A DNA stretch of 5,369 nucleotides from an uncultured Nitrosopumilaceae archaeon (GTDB lineage Archaea > Thermoproteota > Nitrososphaeria > Nitrososphaerales > Nitrosopumilaceae): contig CALFHG010000254.1 in NCBI GenBank assembly GCA_937875805.1, positions 1 to 5,369 on the forward strand. Reading direction: 5' to 3'. Each line of letters begins with the position of its first letter. Position 1 is the first letter of the stretch. The notes under the pieces are model-generated. The model was not told where the DNA came from. It worked only from the letters and a program-made list of their open reading frames with translations, and did no database searches. Shown here in pieces: positions 121 through 4,872 of the stretch. Position numbers and translations under genes: made by a program.

Positions 121-1071
121 ATGTCTTTACTTCTTAAAGACCGAGTATGGTCAATGGAAACTGCCACTGCAAAACGTGGTGTTTATCCTTTACATGGATT
201 CAAACTTGGACTATACAGATTACCAATTAAATTAGAAGAACCTGGTGAGATACGATCTGTTCATGACGGTCTCAAAAAGGCATTTGAAATGGACATGTAT
301 GCCGATAGGATTTACGCCACATATCGTTGGAAAGAACAAAACATGGATGATCCTGATGCCAAAGGATACGAGGAAGTTGACTTGTCAGTTACAGTTGAAA
401 TTGTCACTGGTGAAGTTGGAGATATTATTTATCAAATTTTTCCAATTGAAAAATTCGGTGATCCTAATTGGGTTAAAGATTATAGAAAGAAAGCAGACCA
501 TTTTGCTAAATTAGTTATTGATACAATTTTACGAAATACTATTTTAGCAGACAAAATGATTTCACATCTTGTTAAATCTGAAAAAATTTCTGAAGTTGCA
601 GCCATTCAAAAACTAGAAGAACTAACTCCTCTTGCAAAAATTGTTCTTGGTGCCAAACTAAAACCAGTTGAGGCAAAAGAAGATGAAGAAGGAGAAGAAG
701 ATGATGATTCATTTGAAATTCCTGACGGGGCAAAACCTGGTCCAATTGATGTTAATTACAAATCAAAAATGAAATCAACTGCAGCATATGATGCTATGGG
801 ATATTCAATCAAAACTTGGGGAAGAAAGGGTACAAGCAACGGTATCATGGGAGTTTGGGGAGAATTTGTTTCAGTAGATTATGATATTTGTATTGCAGAT
901 GGCGGGTGTCTTGAGGCTTGTCCTGTAGGTGTATACGAATGGTTTGATACACCTGGCAATCCTGCTTCAGAACAAAAACCATTAATGTCAAAAGAACCTG
1001 ATTGTATTTTCTGTCTTGCATGTGAGGGTGTATGTCCTCCACAAGCAATCAAAATTTACGAGCAAAAATAA
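121..1071 (+). CDS. Ferredoxin-domain protein, zinc-ferredoxin-like, with a novel N-terminal domain
   Basis: This is a probable soluble electron carrier. Residues about 205-316 resemble the archaeal (Sulfolobus/Thermoplasma) zinc-containing ferredoxin. Cluster-binding motif one is C257-x2-D260-x2-C263-x3-C267-P and motif two is C295-x2-C298-x2-C301-x3-C305-P. Asp in the second position of motif one is the family signature for a [3Fe-4S] cluster beside a [4Fe-4S] cluster. The GVYEWFDTPGNPASE segment between the motifs is also family-typical. However, residues 205-316 contain no histidine: the position of Sulfolobus His34 is Trp246 and that of Asp76 is Leu288, so the zinc site is evidently lost. 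Residues 1-180 form a domain I do not recognise, joined by an acidic linker (184-196, E/D-rich). The protein is about three times the usual ferredoxin length. ATG 121 is chosen because it fits the TATA spacing; Met12 is a weaker alternative. The gene has its own promoter, and the next gene starts 53 bases after its stop. Confidence 0.9.
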   Translation: MSLLLKDRVWSMETATAKRGVYPLHGFKLGLYRLPIKLEEPGEIRSVHDGLKKAFEMDMYADRIYATYRWKEQNMDDPDAKGYEEVDLSVTVEIVTGEVGDIIYQIFPIEKFGDPNWVKDYRKKADHFAKLVIDTILRNTILADKMISHLVKSEKISEVAAIQKLEELTPLAKIVLGAKLKPVEAKEDEEGEEDDDSFEIPDGAKPGPIDVNYKSKMKSTAAYDAMGYSIKTWGRKGTSNGIMGVWGEFVSVDYDICIADGGCLEACPVGVYEWFDTPGNPASEQKPLMSKEPDCIFCLACEGVCPPQAIKIYEQK

Positions 1072-1087
1072 TTTTAATTTCTTGCAA

Positions 1088-1095
1088 TTTAAATA
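1088..1095 (+). promoter_or_regulatory. TATA box of the glycosyltransferase gene
   Basis: TTTAAATA lies 33 bases centre-to-start before ATG 1125, predicting a transcription start near 1115-1120 and a very short leader. It is identical to the box in front of the ferredoxin gene. The T-rich stretch right after the ferredoxin stop (1072-1082) could end the upstream transcript, so this gene is probably transcribed independently. Confidence 0.5.
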
Positions 1096-1124
1096 ACAAC
1101 TGATAATTCTGTGAAATTAGGGAT

Positions 1125-3182
1125 ATGGCAATCAACCCTTTTACTTCATTTGTATTTGATCTATTCATTTTCTCTGCTATAATTATCACAGCATATACTG
1201 TTAATTTCTATTATCTTGCAATTCTTGCTAGAACTAGAAAAGAACCTTACCCTACTGTTGACTGGGGAACTCCTACAGTTACAATCCAATTACCAATTTA
1301 CAATGAAAAGTATGTTGCAAAACGACTTGTAGATGCTGTTTGTAATTTAGATTATCCAAAAGACAAAATGAGAATAATGGTATGTGATGATTCTGATGAT
1401 GATACTGTTGAATTACTTGGAAATCTAATTGATGATTACAAAAAACAAGGATTTCAAATTGAACATGTGAGACGTGGAACCAGAATAGGGTACAAAGCTG
1501 GTGCTTTAAAACATGCAATGAAAACAACTGATACTGATCTTGTTGCAATCTTTGATGCTGATTTTATTCCTCCGGATTGGTTTCTTAAACGAGCAATACC
1601 TCATTTCTCCTCATCAAAAATAGGACTAGTTCAGTGTAGATGGGGACACGTCAATGAAAATTATTCTACCATTACTCAGGTACAGGCACTCAGTATTGAT
1701 TTTCATTTCCTCGTAGAGCAAAAAGCAAAAAGCAATTCCCATCTTTTCATGAATTTTAATGGTACTGCAGGAATTTGGAGACGTGCTTGTATTGAAGATG
1801 CTGGAGGTTGGCACACTGCTACACTTGTAGAAGACCTTGATCTTAGTTATCGAGCACAAATGAAAGGTTGGAAATGTTTGTTCTTGCCTGACATTGTTGT
1901 AGAAGCTGAATTACCTGCACAAATGAATGGGGCTAAACGGCAACAATTCCGTTGGGCAAAAGGATCAATTCAATGTGCAATCAAATTGCTATCTGATGTT
2001 GCTCTAAAACGTAATGTTGCAATTGAGGCAAAAATTCAGGCATTTATCCAACTCACTCGCCATATTGTTTATCCACTGGTACTGATACAATTTTTGGCAT
2101 TACCTGTGTTGTTAGCAGGACAAGTTAATCTCTATGTGGTAAATGTTCTTCCTGTTTTGACAATTGCACTATATCTTGCAATGGGTCCTGGAGCATTTCT
2201 TATTGTAATACATGGAATGTATGATAAATCATGGAAGTCTAAAGCAAAATTACTTCCAGCATTACTTGTCTATAATGCTGGTATGGCTGTAAACAATACT
2301 GTTGCAGTATTTGATGCAGTTCTTGGCAAGAAAAATGAATTTCATAGAACTCCAAAATATGGAATCGTAACAAAGCAAGATGATTGGAGAAACAAGGCTT
2401 ACAATTTACCTTTTACACAAACAACTCTTTTGGAAATATTTTTTGGTGTATATGGAATAATGGGTATTTTCATTGCCATTTTTTCAAACAATCCTGTGTT
2501 TGTACCAATTATTGCTCTTCAAGCTATTGGCTTTTTCTACATTGCATATCTGAGTATATCCCATACTCGATTTAAAAGAAATAAATCAAGTGATAATCGA
2601 CCAAAAACTAAGAAGGAAAAAATGGCAAATACTGTTTACAAACTTTCCATGATTGGAATACTTGGAATAATTATCTTTGGAGGATATATGGCAATTTCTG
2701 GTTATAATTCTGATATTTATCCTCTTGATAGAATTAGAGGAAATCTTGATGGTATCATGACTTCTTCTGATCCTAATGTAATTCGTAATCATTTAGTGGC
2801 AATTCAGGCTGATTTGGATATCTTGATGGTGAGTTTACCTGAAACTGTTGATTCTGAAGGTAAAGTAATTTCAAGAAACCCTGTTTGGTTGTTTGGCACA
2901 GAATCTACAAATTTCCTTCGAATTCAAAATAACATAAACACGATGCTTGCAGGTATTGATGAAATCTCATCGATTTCAAAAGAAAACTCTGCATATCATA
3001 CTGGAATGCTTGATATCAATGATAGGGCACTAATACTGAAAATCAACATTATGGATGCAACTCCCTACATGTATGTCAGCCTTGCAAATATGATGATGAG
3101 TGCTATTTGGATTGCAGCAATTATTGGAATCTTTGCTGCATTAAAAAGAAAGAAAGAACAACTCAATAAACTTGACGAATAG
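1125..3182 (+). CDS. Membrane glycosyltransferase family 2, cellulose/mannan-synthase-like, with extra C-terminal external domain
   Basis: This is a processive-type GT2 enzyme, expected to use a nucleotide sugar in the cytoplasm and move or attach glycan at the cell membrane. All catalytic signatures are visible: PIYNE (57-61), D88-D89 for the nucleotide, DAD (D144, D146) for the metal, FNGTAG (211-216), the VED variant of the TED base motif (E236, D237) and QQFRW (Q273, R276, W277) of the QxxRW type. Hydrophobic segments lie near 8-34, 312-333, 338-364, 376-398 (perhaps an interface helix before the FHRTPKYG motif), 432-453 and 457-478. After a basic linker (482-498) a further pair of membrane helices (503-525, 652-673) brackets about 125 residues that should face outside, and the tail is basic. 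This last module is not part of standard GT2 enzymes and I do not recognise it. The sugar specificity cannot be read from sequence; cellulose, mannan or another hexose polymer, or an S-layer/lipid glycan, are all possible. Stop TAG is followed by an in-frame TGA. Confidence 0.9.
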   Translation: MAINPFTSFVFDLFIFSAIIITAYTVNFYYLAILARTRKEPYPTVDWGTPTVTIQLPIYNEKYVAKRLVDAVCNLDYPKDKMRIMVCDDSDDDTVELLGNLIDDYKKQGFQIEHVRRGTRIGYKAGALKHAMKTTDTDLVAIFDADFIPPDWFLKRAIPHFSSSKIGLVQCRWGHVNENYSTITQVQALSIDFHFLVEQKAKSNSHLFMNFNGTAGIWRRACIEDAGGWHTATLVEDLDLSYRAQMKGWKCLFLPDIVVEAELPAQMNGAKRQQFRWAKGSIQCAIKLLSDVALKRNVAIEAKIQAFIQLTRHIVYPLVLIQFLALPVLLAGQVNLYVVNVLPVLTIALYLAMGPGAFLIVIHGMYDKSWKSKAKLLPALLVYNAGMAVNNTVAVFDAVLGKKNEFHRTPKYGIVTKQDDWRNKAYNLPFTQTTLLEIFFGVYGIMGIFIAIFSNNPVFVPIIALQAIGFFYIAYLSISHTRFKRNKSSDNRPKTKKEKMANTVYKLSMIGILGIIIFGGYMAISGYNSDIYPLDRIRGNLDGIMTSSDPNVIRNHLVAIQADLDILMVSLPETVDSEGKVISRNPVWLFGTESTNFLRIQNNINTMLAGIDEISSISKENSAYHTGMLDINDRALILKINIMDATPYMYVSLANMMMSAIWIAAIIGIFAALKRKKEQLNKLDE
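3143..3157 (-). terminator. Candidate oligo-T terminator of the coiled-coil gene
   Basis: Read on the minus strand this is TTTCTTTCTTTTT, about 30-45 bases beyond the stop of the coiled-coil gene, and it lies inside the antisense of the glycosyltransferase 3' end. Archaeal RNA polymerase often terminates at such T-rich runs without a hairpin. It also encodes the Lys-rich tail on the other strand, so the base composition has another explanation. Confidence 0.3.
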
Positions 3183-3185
3183 TGA

Positions 3186-4679
3186 TTAAGAAATATTTAG
3201 ATCCTTTCTAATTTCATCTACTGCTCTAATTCCATAAATGTCTCTTACTTGCTGAATTCTAATTGCCTCTTTTAGCATATCTTTGCCTATTGCATTTGTT
3301 AAAATTGAATAGACATCACTGAATCTTACTTCCCATTTGTCTGCGCAATCTAACATTTTGCCTACTGCCCATTGTCTTACTTCGTGAGGTAGTGGAATAT
3401 TTTCTCCAGATTCTATTGAGATTTTATCAAACAAATTTACAATGCCAGCTGTTTGTGATGCCATTTTTTCAATATCTTTTACAACTCCGTATTTTGACTC
3501 TGCATTCATTCTAATATTTGATTGATACTCTGATAGCTTTAACAACGCCATAACTTCTTTTGATGAATTACTAGATGCCTTACTTGTAACTTCTTTGACT
3601 GATTGTAATTCCTGAAATAGTCTTTCAGATTTTTTATGAAATTCAATTGTGGATTCATCTTGTCTCTTTAATGTGTCAGAGACTGATGATATTTTTTGTT
3701 CAATACTGTTTGTTTTATCAAATACATTTTCTTTAAAATTAGAAAAATCATCTTGAACTGATTTTAGTCCTTCTCCAACAAATGCTGTAGAGTCTGCTCT
3801 TTGTACTAGGGCACCAACCTCAGTCTCAATTTTATCTATTTTTCCACCTAGATCTTTGATGGTTTCAATACTCAAATTGTCTACAACATTTGCTTTTGAT
3901 GATATAGCGTTAAATTGTTCTTTGAGACCATCAATTACTCCTCCCAATGAATCAATTTTTGATGCTTTTGATGAAATGGCATCAATTGTAATTTTGATTG
4001 CATCTAATTCTGAATGAAGGTTTGAAGTAGATGATACTCCATCTGAAATTCTTCCAAGTTCTTGTTTGAGACTTTCAATAATTTGAGAACCTGTATCTAA
4101 TTTTGCAGTTTTTCCTGAAATTTCATTTATGGTATTTTTTAAATTATCCATTTCAGATCCAATTTTTAAAAATGAATCTGTCTTTCCAGAAACTTTTCTT
4201 AGATCCTCTCTTACTTCATCAATTCTTTGAGCAATTTTGATAATCATTTGAGAATTATTTTTAATTGAATTCATACTGTCTTCGACTTGTTCTGGTTTTG
4301 ATAATTTTTGTAATTCAGAAATTCTACTGATTTCATTTTCTAATTTGGAAGTCTGGTCGTTAATTTTATTAACTAAATTTGATTGTGATCTGACTTGGTT
4401 TAATCCTGCGTATAATTTTTGAGTATCATCTTCTATAATGTTAATTTGTTTTGATTGTTTTTGAATATGCTCTAATGTGGATGTTAATGCATCAATCATC
4501 CCTTTCATAGAAATTAGAACTTTTTGATTTTCACCAAATATTTTTGACATTACTTTGATCTCTTTTTGTAATGCTTTGTTTGAATCTGAAACTGATGCTA
4601 CCTTTTTTAATATCGCTGAAGGATTAGGCTCTTTTTTTGCCTTTACTGTTATTTTCTTCTTTGTGATTTTGGCAGCCAT
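3186..4679 (-). CDS. Long coiled-coil protein with 24-residue repeats and conserved-looking C-terminal domain
   Basis: The function is unknown. The 497-residue product has four regions. Residues 1-17 are lysine-rich (7 Lys), suggesting contact with nucleic acid or acidic lipid. Residues about 30-80 are a first helical segment. Residues 82-314 are a tandem array of 24-residue coiled-coil repeats with consensus ISxKaxkidxL.. xIdxLKxxi. Residues about 315-420 are further coiled coil, and residues about 425-497 are a compact, less repetitive domain containing PHEVRQWAVGKMLD and IRIQQVRDIYGIRAVDEIR. There is no signal peptide or membrane helix, so it should be cytoplasmic or nucleoid-associated. 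SMC-like or chemotaxis-receptor-like annotations could arise from the coiled coil, but I see no Walker motif, HAMP domain or receptor hairpin tip. The gene is convergent with the glycosyltransferase (three bases between stops) and lies 60 bases downstream of the zinc-finger gene on the same strand. ATG 4679 is the only good start; the next Met is residue 44. Confidence 0.85.
   Translation of the reverse strand: MAAKITKKKITVKAKKEPNPSAILKKVASVSDSNKALQKEIKVMSKIFGENQKVLISMKGMIDALTSTLEHIQKQSKQINIIEDDTQKLYAGLNQVRSQSNLVNKINDQTSKLENEISRISELQKLSKPEQVEDSMNSIKNNSQMIIKIAQRIDEVREDLRKVSGKTDSFLKIGSEMDNLKNTINEISGKTAKLDTGSQIIESLKQELGRISDGVSSTSNLHSELDAIKITIDAISSKASKIDSLGGVIDGLKEQFNAISSKANVVDNLSIETIKDLGGKIDKIETEVGALVQRADSTAFVGEGLKSVQDDFSNFKENVFDKTNSIEQKISSVSDTLKRQDESTIEFHKKSERLFQELQSVKEVTSKASSNSSKEVMALLKLSEYQSNIRMNAESKYGVVKDIEKMASQTAGIVNLFDKISIESGENIPLPHEVRQWAVGKMLDCADKWEVRFSDVYSILTNAIGKDMLKEAIRIQQVRDIYGIRAVDEIRKDLNIS
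3738..4436 (-). repeat. Array of 72-base (24-residue) coding repeats within the coiled-coil gene
   Basis: Copies begin at residues 82, 106, 139, 163, 187, 211, 235, 259 and 291. Five consecutive copies (139-258) are exactly 24 residues each; the 259 copy has one inserted residue, and spacers of 9 and 7 residues separate the outer copies. Shared positions are 1 (I/V/L), 5 (T/A/V/S), 8, 11, 15 (I/M/L/V), 18 (mostly L/I/V) and 22 (mostly I/L/F/V). The strongest pair, starting at residues 235 and 259, also matches at DNA level: TGCTTTTGATGA recurs at 3891 and 3963, exactly 72 bases apart. The array probably grew by duplication of a helical unit. Confidence 0.8.
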
Positions 4680-4739: not shown

Positions 4740-4847
4740 TTACTTGTTTACCACTGTTGGTTCATGAAGTAACTCATGAAATGTTTTTTCAGCCAAACCG
4801 TTGACTGTTTCAATAAATCCTCTTGGACAATATTCACATTGAATCAT
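4740..4847 (-). CDS. Zinc-finger microprotein, single C2H2-type finger (35 aa)
   Basis: This short gene encodes a protein starting MIQCEYCPRGFIETVNG and ending in TVVNK. It holds one C2H2-type zinc-finger pattern: C4-x2-C7-x16-H24-x3-H28, with Phe11 at the C-x3-F position of classical fingers; the loop is about four residues longer than the classical 12. Almost the entire protein is the finger. Likely roles are binding DNA, RNA or a protein partner as a small regulator; the sequence cannot say which. ATG 4847 is the only in-frame ATG before an upstream in-frame TAG, and a TATA-like box is centred about 26 bases before it, fitting a leaderless message. It lies 60 bases upstream of the coiled-coil gene on the same strand, so read-through could link the two. 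What makes it credible despite its length is the combination of correct metal-ligand spacing, neighbour-like codon use and a well-placed promoter. Confidence 0.7.
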   Translation of the reverse strand: MIQCEYCPRGFIETVNGLAEKTFHELLHEPTVVNK

Positions 4848-4872
4848 ATAGTACGGTATGGTACCGTACTAT
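4848..4872. promoter_or_regulatory. Perfect 25-base palindrome (11+3+11), probable operator
   Basis: The arms are ATAGTACGGTA (4848-4858) and its exact reverse complement (4862-4872) around a TGG centre. The element touches the start codon of the zinc-finger gene on one side and overlaps its TATA-like box on the other. If that mRNA is leaderless the palindrome is not transcribed, so a dimeric DNA-binding protein site is more likely than an RNA hairpin. Binding there would block the polymerase start region. It may be autoregulatory or may serve another repressor; a role in the divergent antiporter gene is less likely, as that start is over 220 bases away. Confidence 0.6.

What the first reader, a model, noticed from the sequence alone, without database searches (positions are those of the whole stretch)
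3738..4436. Tandem 24-residue repeat coiled coil with a regular stammer
Hydrophobic positions in each repeat fall at 1, 5, 8, 11, 15, 18 and 22, giving spacings 4-3-3-4-3-4-3. That equals three heptads plus a three-residue stammer, seven core layers in 24 residues (3.43 per turn versus 3.5 for plain heptads). About nine copies are detectable, five exactly adjacent at 24 residues. Such a periodic, slightly overwound coiled coil is unusual and suggests a rod or filament of defined length, or a scaffold with repeated binding faces.
Basis: partly seen in the sequence, partly recalled or inferred. Interest (0 to 1): 0.7.

Follow-up and report, generated by a model that had tools for sequence, protein, structure and literature searches.

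The report
Archaeal rod of 24-residue stammer units
A protein found in nearly all sampled genomes of one family of archaea, the relatives of Nitrosopumilus, carries back-to-back 24-residue units whose number differs between species, often by whole units, and these units are predicted to form an unusually tightly wound coiled-coil rod that likely serves as a spacer inside the cell.

Summary
The minus-strand gene (window 3186-4679, 497 aa) has six exactly adjacent 24-residue units at aa 136-279. Hydrophobic residues there repeat every 3.43 residues (24/7), with little signal at 3.5; aa 281-390 is a plain heptad coil. Offset 24 is the strongest self-similarity in 55 of 61 orthologues and in none of 17 control coil stretches. 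Orthologues differ by whole units (+24, +48, +96; -24, -48, -72 beside an 8-residue indel), one through an exact 144-bp duplication; other indel sizes also occur. Among 398 phylum genomes the C-terminal domain is found in 61 of 63 of one family and 0 of 335 others. Database names ('chemotaxis protein', 'SbcCD ATPase') are not supported. I read it as a cytosolic coiled-coil spacer rod between a basic tail and a conserved C-terminal helical domain; oligomeric state and function are inferred. AlphaFold gave helix at low confidence with breaks, so a continuous rod is unproven. New: directly upstream lies an unannotated, conserved 35-aa C2H2-type microprotein behind a palindromic promoter element. 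Papers read describe stammers as strained and rarer than stutters; a regular stammer array would be a new variant.

The parts
3186..4679 (-). Gene of the 497-aa rod protein (ATG at 4679, stop codon ends at 3186)
   Evidence: ORF; orthologues in 61 of 63 sampled genomes of the family
4605..4679 (-). Lysine-rich N-terminal tail, aa 1-25
   Evidence: Approximate net charge +4 or more in 47 of 57 orthologues that could be measured (of 61); +2 to +3 in genus g8; low pLDDT
4302..4604 (-). First coil, aa 26-126; period 3.405-3.42 in aa 61-135
4287..4301 (-). Break between coils, aa 127-131, site of +4/+5 indels
   Evidence: AF2 break, indels
4203..4274 (-). 24-residue unit 1, aa 136-159
4131..4202 (-). 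24-residue unit 2, aa 160-183
4059..4130 (-). 24-residue unit 3, aa 184-207; contains the AF2 break at 194-199
   Evidence: resembles unit 5 (38% aa, 64% nt)
3987..4058 (-). 24-residue unit 4, aa 208-231
   Evidence: resembles unit 2 (33% aa, 53% nt)
3915..3986 (-). 24-residue unit 5, aa 232-255
3843..3914 (-). 24-residue unit 6, aa 256-279; contains the AF2 break at 267-271 and the site of the 8-residue indel
3555..3794 (-). AF2 break aa 296-302 and plain heptad coil aa 303-375 (period 3.505-3.510 in aa 281-390)
3189..3554 (-). Conserved C-terminal helical domain, aa 376-497
   Evidence: AF2 pLDDT 91.5, pTM 0.82; 24-row alignment with 70% mean column identity; no PDB sequence match at E up to 10
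4740..4847 (-). Unannotated 35-aa C2H2-type microprotein gene (C-x2-C-x16-H-x3-H), upstream on the same strand
   Evidence: Found within 600 nt in 132 of 137 loci, duplicates of genomes included; differences by codon position 408/358/1464; 62 of 63 sampled genomes of the family
4848..4872 (.). 25-bp palindrome (11-bp arms, 3-bp spacer) abutting the microprotein start codon, operator-like

Best explanation
The gene encodes a 497-residue protein whose middle holds six adjacent 24-residue units with hydrophobic residues repeating every 3.43 residues, and this stretch is predicted to form an overwound left-handed coiled coil that likely acts as a cytosolic spacer rod of evolvable length. Shown by sequence: the period, the 24/7 pattern, the mostly small residue at the stammer position, the neighbouring heptad coil, and gain and loss of whole units between species. 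Predicted: helix in most of the chain, a compact C-terminal helical domain, no membrane span. Inferred: chains assemble in parallel (probably two or three strands); the strain of one stammer per 24 residues is spread over three heptads or absorbed near the I-S-x-K-T/A motif; each unit adds about 3.5 nm; the basic tail holds a polyanion such as DNA at one end and the C-terminal domain a protein partner at the other. Expression is likely controlled at the palindrome in front of the upstream C2H2-type microprotein gene, with which it probably forms an operon.
For: Period and core. Orthologues: offset 24 is top in 55 of 61, 48 in one more. Whole-unit indels: +48 (L036, L085, P0007, P0042, P0053, P0056), +96 (P0047), +24 (L041, P0075); -24, -48 and -72 beside the 8-residue indel (L051-L053; L056 and L058-L060; L055). 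Tree of 127 rows: 25 changes of zone length, +24 arising twice, +48 three times, +96 once. The L036 duplication is 144 bp at 100% identity. A distant genus (L043) has an array of its own, 62% between neighbouring units, with offset 24 on top. In the heptad zone the commonest large indels are -42 (8 rows) and -35 (3 rows), multiples of 7. Controls: 17 coil stretches, none with 24 on top, periods 3.455-3.55. C-terminal domain. Highest 19-residue hydropathy mean 0.91. Microprotein and palindrome.
Against: The full-length AF2 model has mean pLDDT 68.2 and pTM 0.30, with helix breaks at 127-131, 194-199, 267-271 and 296-302, two of them inside the array. The array region has 11 glycines in 151 residues. 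Not all indels in or at the edge of the array are whole units: -7/-8, +16, -32, -35 (L057), -46, -83 (L054), about -42 to -50 (L048-L050), +112 (P0018, P0020). The most distant orthologue (L061) has offsets 55 and 27 on top, and five of 61 orthologues, L061 included, have 7, 21 or 55 on top. Held-out profiles recover 3 of 6 units, two just above and one just below the best core-pattern-preserving shuffle. One control stretch (L189) has a sizeable offset-24 signal, z 3.7. No oligomer was modelled and there are no functional data. Microprotein and palindrome persist in G366 without the rod gene, so the two need not work together.
Confidence: 0.5

Rival explanations
1. The units are jointed helices: each 24-residue unit is a three-heptad helix ending in a flexible S-G/S-K or glycine turn, and the array folds back on itself or stays jointed instead of forming one continuous overwound coil.
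For: AF2 breaks at 194-199 and 267-271, with ten-residue blocks of pLDDT 44-57 around them; 11 glycines in 151 residues.
Against: AF2 keeps helices of 62 and 67 residues (132-193, 200-266) across most unit borders; the core phase stays coherent at 24/7 over 150 residues; loops would not demand an exact 24-residue spacing in so many species (inference).
Confidence: 0.22
2. It is a self-assembling cytoskeletal filament protein of the FilP/Scy/crescentin kind that helps to shape the cells of this family, the repeats setting lateral register between rods.
For: Coil segments of different period separated by short breaks, as described for Scy, whose C-terminal domain has a 51-residue repeat over 14 turns next to a canonical coil (one passage of PMC3718342); the gene is limited to one family in the sample.
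Against: No relation to those proteins came up in the profile and protein searches made here (one search lists only the best 120 of 1943); unit number varies between close relatives, which would change filament register; a globular C-terminal domain is among the best conserved parts.
Confidence: 0.2
3. It is an ordinary heptad coiled coil, and the 24-residue period is a chance irregularity.
For: Copies are weakly alike (8-38%); aa 281-390 is a heptad coil.
Against: Power at 3.5 is 0.4-1.2 in aa 131-280; 55 of 61 orthologues have offset 24 on top; whole-unit indels; none of 17 control stretches has it on top.
Confidence: 0.03
4. It is a chemotaxis receptor or the coil of an SMC/Rad50/SbcC ATPase, as automatic names in the databases say.
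For: Source names 'chemotaxis protein', 'DNA repair exonuclease SbcCD ATPase subunit', 'chromosome segregation ATPase'; weak profile matches on the coil.
Against: MCP signalling domain 11.1 bits against a cut-off of 34.6; Rad50, SbcC and SMC-type matches 14-37 bits against cut-offs of 300-1087; no stretch hydrophobic enough for a membrane span; no ATPase domain among Pfam matches at E up to 1.
Confidence: 0.02

Closest known systems
Stammers in trimeric coiled coils (designed stalk constructs; human L1ORF1p)
   Same: A three-residue insertion into heptads, with local overwinding and, in L1ORF1p, an extra core layer (Introduction and passages of PMC4786415; passages of PMC5940361). L1ORF1p and trimeric autotransporter chains are among the weak PDB matches of the array profile (6fia E 0.77, 2wpr E 0.025), in a list that also holds unrelated proteins.
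   Different: In the passages read these are localised stammers (10/3) absorbed by a short 3-10 segment; here one stammer recurs every 24 residues for six units, at a fixed place in the unit.
Scy of Streptomyces (CC51 repeat)
   Different: 51 residues over 14 turns is 3.64 per turn, above 3.5; here 24 over 7 is 3.43, below 3.5. No sequence relation shown.
Small zinc-finger microproteins of archaea (recalled, no call)
   Same: The upstream 35-aa protein has two invariant Cys and two invariant His in C2H2 order with invariant Phe and Leu. Weak PDB matches (E 0.037 to 8.3) include several C2H2 fingers, though the best row (E 0.018) is protein A.
   Different: The C-to-H spacing is 16 residues, longer than the classical 12 (recalled); no Pfam zinc-finger match at E up to 10.

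Membership tests
Canonical heptad coiled coil | Core period of 3.5 in the array (aa 131-280) | tested here: not met
   Power at 3.5 is 0.4-1.2, at 24/7 20.8-24.0
Canonical heptad coiled coil | Core period of 3.5 in aa 281-390 | tested here: met
   Peak 3.505-3.510
[quoted passage not shown]
   Positions 1, 4, 8, 11, 14, 18, 21 in 24 residues, by sequence; position 8 mostly small
Stammer-containing coiled coil | Overwound helices or a local 3-10 turn in an oligomer | not testable with these tools
   Only monomer models, without coordinates
Methyl-accepting chemotaxis protein | MCP signalling domain | tested here: not met
   PF00015 at 11.1 bits, cut-off 34.6
Methyl-accepting chemotaxis protein | Transmembrane segments (typical, not universal) | tested here: not met
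   Highest 19-residue hydropathy mean 0.91; the usual cut-off of about 1.6 is recalled
SMC / Rad50 / SbcC | ATPase head domains | tested here: not met
   No ATPase domain among Pfam matches; NCBIfam matches far below their cut-offs
SpiroCoCo coiled-coil proteins (NF047515) | Score above the curated cut-off | tested here: not met
   41.5 bits, cut-off 125
Archaellum proteins FlaD/E (PF04659) | Arch_fla_DE domain | tested here: not met
   Not among Pfam matches at E up to 1; no match in the own genome, which is 88.6% complete
Scy-type CC51 | 51-residue repeat | tested here: not met
   Period is 24
C2H2 zinc finger (upstream microprotein) | Two Cys and two His with conserved Phe and Leu | tested here: met
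   C4, C7, F11, L18, H24, H28 invariant in 26 rows
C2H2 zinc finger (upstream microprotein) | Match to a curated zinc-finger profile | tested here: not met
   Only Fer2_2 at E 0.062, below its cut-off, in Pfam
C2H2 zinc finger (upstream microprotein) | Binds zinc | not testable with these tools
   No experiment

The most novel reading that the evidence does not exclude
This is a natural coiled coil with a regular period below 3.5: a stammer every 24 residues, spread over three heptads, used as a building block. With a 3.6-residue helix each unit turns the supercoil by 120 degrees (140 with 3.63), so in a three-stranded rod every unit would show the same face at the same azimuth about every 3.5 nm: a molecular ruler with in-line binding sites whose length evolution sets by adding or dropping whole units.
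Probability: 0.3. Interest if true: 0.78.

Novelty: new variant of a known kind. Interest (0 to 1): 0.6.

Why it matters
The papers read here describe stammers as strained, destabilising and less frequent than stutters, and the vast majority of known non-heptad coils as lying above 3.5 residues per turn (PMC4786415, PMC5940361). A conserved protein with one stammer per 24 residues, in many species and in several unit numbers, gives a ready natural series for measuring how far left-handed supercoiling can be pushed and whether overwinding can be delocalised. It also marks an uncharacterised, nearly universal gene pair (rod plus C2H2-type microprotein) of one archaeal family.

Tried and rejected

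Limits of counts: the unit profile was trained on the family itself, including the window protein, so its counts are not independent. The 17 controls are coil stretches, chosen by a crude composition filter, from frames of 300 aa or more in loci fetched with SMC and Rad50 profiles from the own genome and six relatives (two of them outside the family); some are versions of one protein. The tree is a quick tree without mixture model on aa 30-123, 136-159 and 340-497 (unit 1 is included); L061 was left out. One search dropped 7 of 142 proteins (one, L062, not of the family) by an N-terminal motif; L027 was put back. N-terminal charges could be measured in 57 of 61, with the start codon uncertain in many. 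Counts over loci (111, 132, 137, 190) include the same genome under two locus names. Of 183 confirmed stretches only the best 80 were kept. Some expanded variants are metagenome contigs, so assembly error in single cases is possible.

Full report
What was checked. The finding lies on the minus strand in an open frame of 497 codons (window 3186-4679). Relatives in named genomes are mostly labelled Nitrosopumilus, Nitrosarchaeum, Nitrosopumilaceae or Thaumarchaeota (80 loci kept of 183 confirmed).

The period is real. Residue autocorrelation has its highest peak at offset 24 (z 6.3 in aa 81-390; 0 of 2000 shuffles reach it), and the best ungapped self-alignment is at offset 24 with score 152 against at most 58 in 500 shuffles. 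When the pattern of hydrophobic residues is kept and only residues within classes are shuffled, offset 24 still has z 3.9 and offset 48 z 5.7 in aa 131-282, but 0.8 and -0.6 in the neighbouring aa 283-375. So the units share more than a core pattern, and they tend to alternate in a 48-residue order (units 2 and 4 alike, units 3 and 5 alike). Single units are only 8-38% identical. Held-out profiles recovered unit 5 (15.3 bits; best of 1000 core-preserving shuffles 15.7) and units 2 and 3 (17.1 and 16.7; best 16.6), and missed units 1, 4 and 6.

The core is 24/7. Hydrophobic power in aa 131-280 peaks at 3.425-3.435 residues, with 20.8-24.0 at 24/7 and 0.4-1.2 at 3.5; aa 281-390 peaks at 3.505-3.510. 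Over the whole aa 25-390 the peak is 3.48-3.485, as the coils differ and slip in phase. In the unit, positions 1, 4, 11, 14, 18 and 21 are I/L/V/M/F in 74-96% of the family on average over the six units, and position 8, the stammer layer, is Thr, Ala, Ser or Val in about 90% of 72 units. The run around it often reads I-S-x-K-T/A, also in distant orthologues whose arrays otherwise differ.

Natural controls. Offset 24 is the top offset in 55 of 61 orthologues, 48 in one, and 7, 21 or 55 in five. Of 17 coil stretches from loci fetched with SMC and Rad50 profiles none has 24 on top; their z at 24 is 3.7 in one and at most 1.8 in the others, and their strongest periods are 3.455-3.55. In the own genome the array profile finds only this gene at E up to 10.

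Unit number evolves. Against the window protein, relatives differ inside the array by +48 (six rows), +96 (P0047, ten exactly adjacent units), +24 (L041, P0075), and by -24, -48 or -72 beside an 8-residue indel near aa 263-276 (L051-L053; L056 and L058-L060; L055). L036 is an exact 144-bp tandem copy. On a tree of 127 rows the length of this zone changes at least 25 times; +24 arises twice, +48 three times and +96 once. Not all events are whole units: -7/-8, +16, -32, -35, -46, -83, about -42 to -50, and +112 also occur in or at the edge of the array. In the heptad zone the commonest large events are -42 (8 rows) and -35 (3 rows), multiples of 7. In a distant genus (L043) three neighbouring units are 62% identical from one to the next, but units in aligned places are 21-42% identical to the window's: the array turned over while the period stayed.

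Distribution and setting. In 398 genomes of the phylum the C-terminal profile finds 61 genomes, all among the 63 of the window's own family; the whole protein finds the same 61 plus one weak coil match. The two genomes without it (G082, G366) keep the ferredoxin-like and glycosyltransferase genes; no rod frame was seen in the stretch read next to them. The glycosyltransferase lies in the same locus in 109 of 111 loci examined; in seven of these the rod gene has the opposite orientation relative to its neighbours.

Upstream microprotein. Directly upstream on the same strand is a 35-codon frame encoding a protein with invariant Cys4, Cys7, Phe11, Leu18, His24 and His28 in 26 rows. It is found within 600 nt in 132 of 137 loci (57 distinct sequences); three of the five misses are locus ends, one (L027, genome G278) has it farther upstream, one (L085) was not found. 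Differences from the window fall at codon positions 1/2/3 as 408/358/1464, duplicates included, the pattern of a translated frame. It occurs in 62 of 63 genomes of the family and, apart from one weak match (G337, E 0.001), in none of the other 335. Its start codon abuts a 25-bp palindrome that overlaps a TATTAATA element; 123 of 132 loci have a palindrome score of 8 or more there, against 2 of 132 shuffles. The strict pattern occurs at one site in each of the 8 genomes, of 21 searched, that have it. This is a usual place for an archaeal operator in front of a leaderless gene (recalled knowledge). In G366 microprotein and palindrome persist without the rod gene, which argues that they have a role of their own, perhaps autoregulation.

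Structure. AF2 on 52 sequences gives helices 20-126, 132-193, 200-266, 272-295 and 303-393 at mean pLDDT 68.2, which supports helix but not a continuous rod; oligomers could not be modelled. The C-terminal 122 residues give pLDDT 91.5, without a clear relative in the PDB.

How it likely works. From the anatomy I infer a parallel oligomeric rod with a basic tail at one end and a conserved helical domain at the other, its middle made of units that add about 3.5 nm each. With a helix of 3.6 residues per turn a 24/7 coil has 72 residues per supercoil turn against 126 for a heptad coil (62 against 98 with 3.63), and a unit turns by 120 (or 140) degrees. PMC4786415 (Introduction read) describes stammers as strained, accommodated by a 3-10 segment, and notes that delocalisation could avoid the distortion; PMC5940361 (passages) reports that removing the stammer of L1ORF1p stabilises its coil and that the construct failed to retrotranspose. 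Repeating the stammer every three heptads would be the delocalised case in nature, if the array is continuous. Shown: period, conservation, unit turnover, gene pair. Inferred: strand number, continuity, what the ends bind, role.

Verdict. Interest 0.6.

Noticed in passing
window 4740-4847 (-): Unannotated, conserved 35-aa C2H2-type microprotein gene in front of the rod gene, present in 62 of 63 sampled genomes of the family.
   Followed up: yes
window 4848-4872: 25-bp palindrome abutting the microprotein start codon; its strict form occurs at one site in each of 8 genomes (of 21 searched) that have it.
   Followed up: partly
L211:2080-2420: G366 keeps microprotein and palindromic promoter but has no rod gene between them and the glycosyltransferase.
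   Followed up: partly
L061: The most distant orthologue (660 aa) has self-similarity at offsets 55 and 27 and a very basic N-terminus instead of the 24-residue array.
   Followed up: no
L037-L040, L048-L050: In one genus the rod gene has the opposite orientation relative to its neighbours; where looked at, the microprotein gene stays upstream of it.
   Followed up: no
G311:C1:1154892-1156894: The glycosyltransferase beside the most distant orthologue is split over two frames, with a TAA stop inside one match.
   Followed up: no
G174:C19:53541-53642: A second, diverged copy of the microprotein elsewhere in one genome (E 1.4e-10).
   Followed up: no
window 121-3182 (+): A 4Fe-4S ferredoxin-like protein and a GT2 glycosyltransferase form a conserved neighbourhood.
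   Followed up: partly
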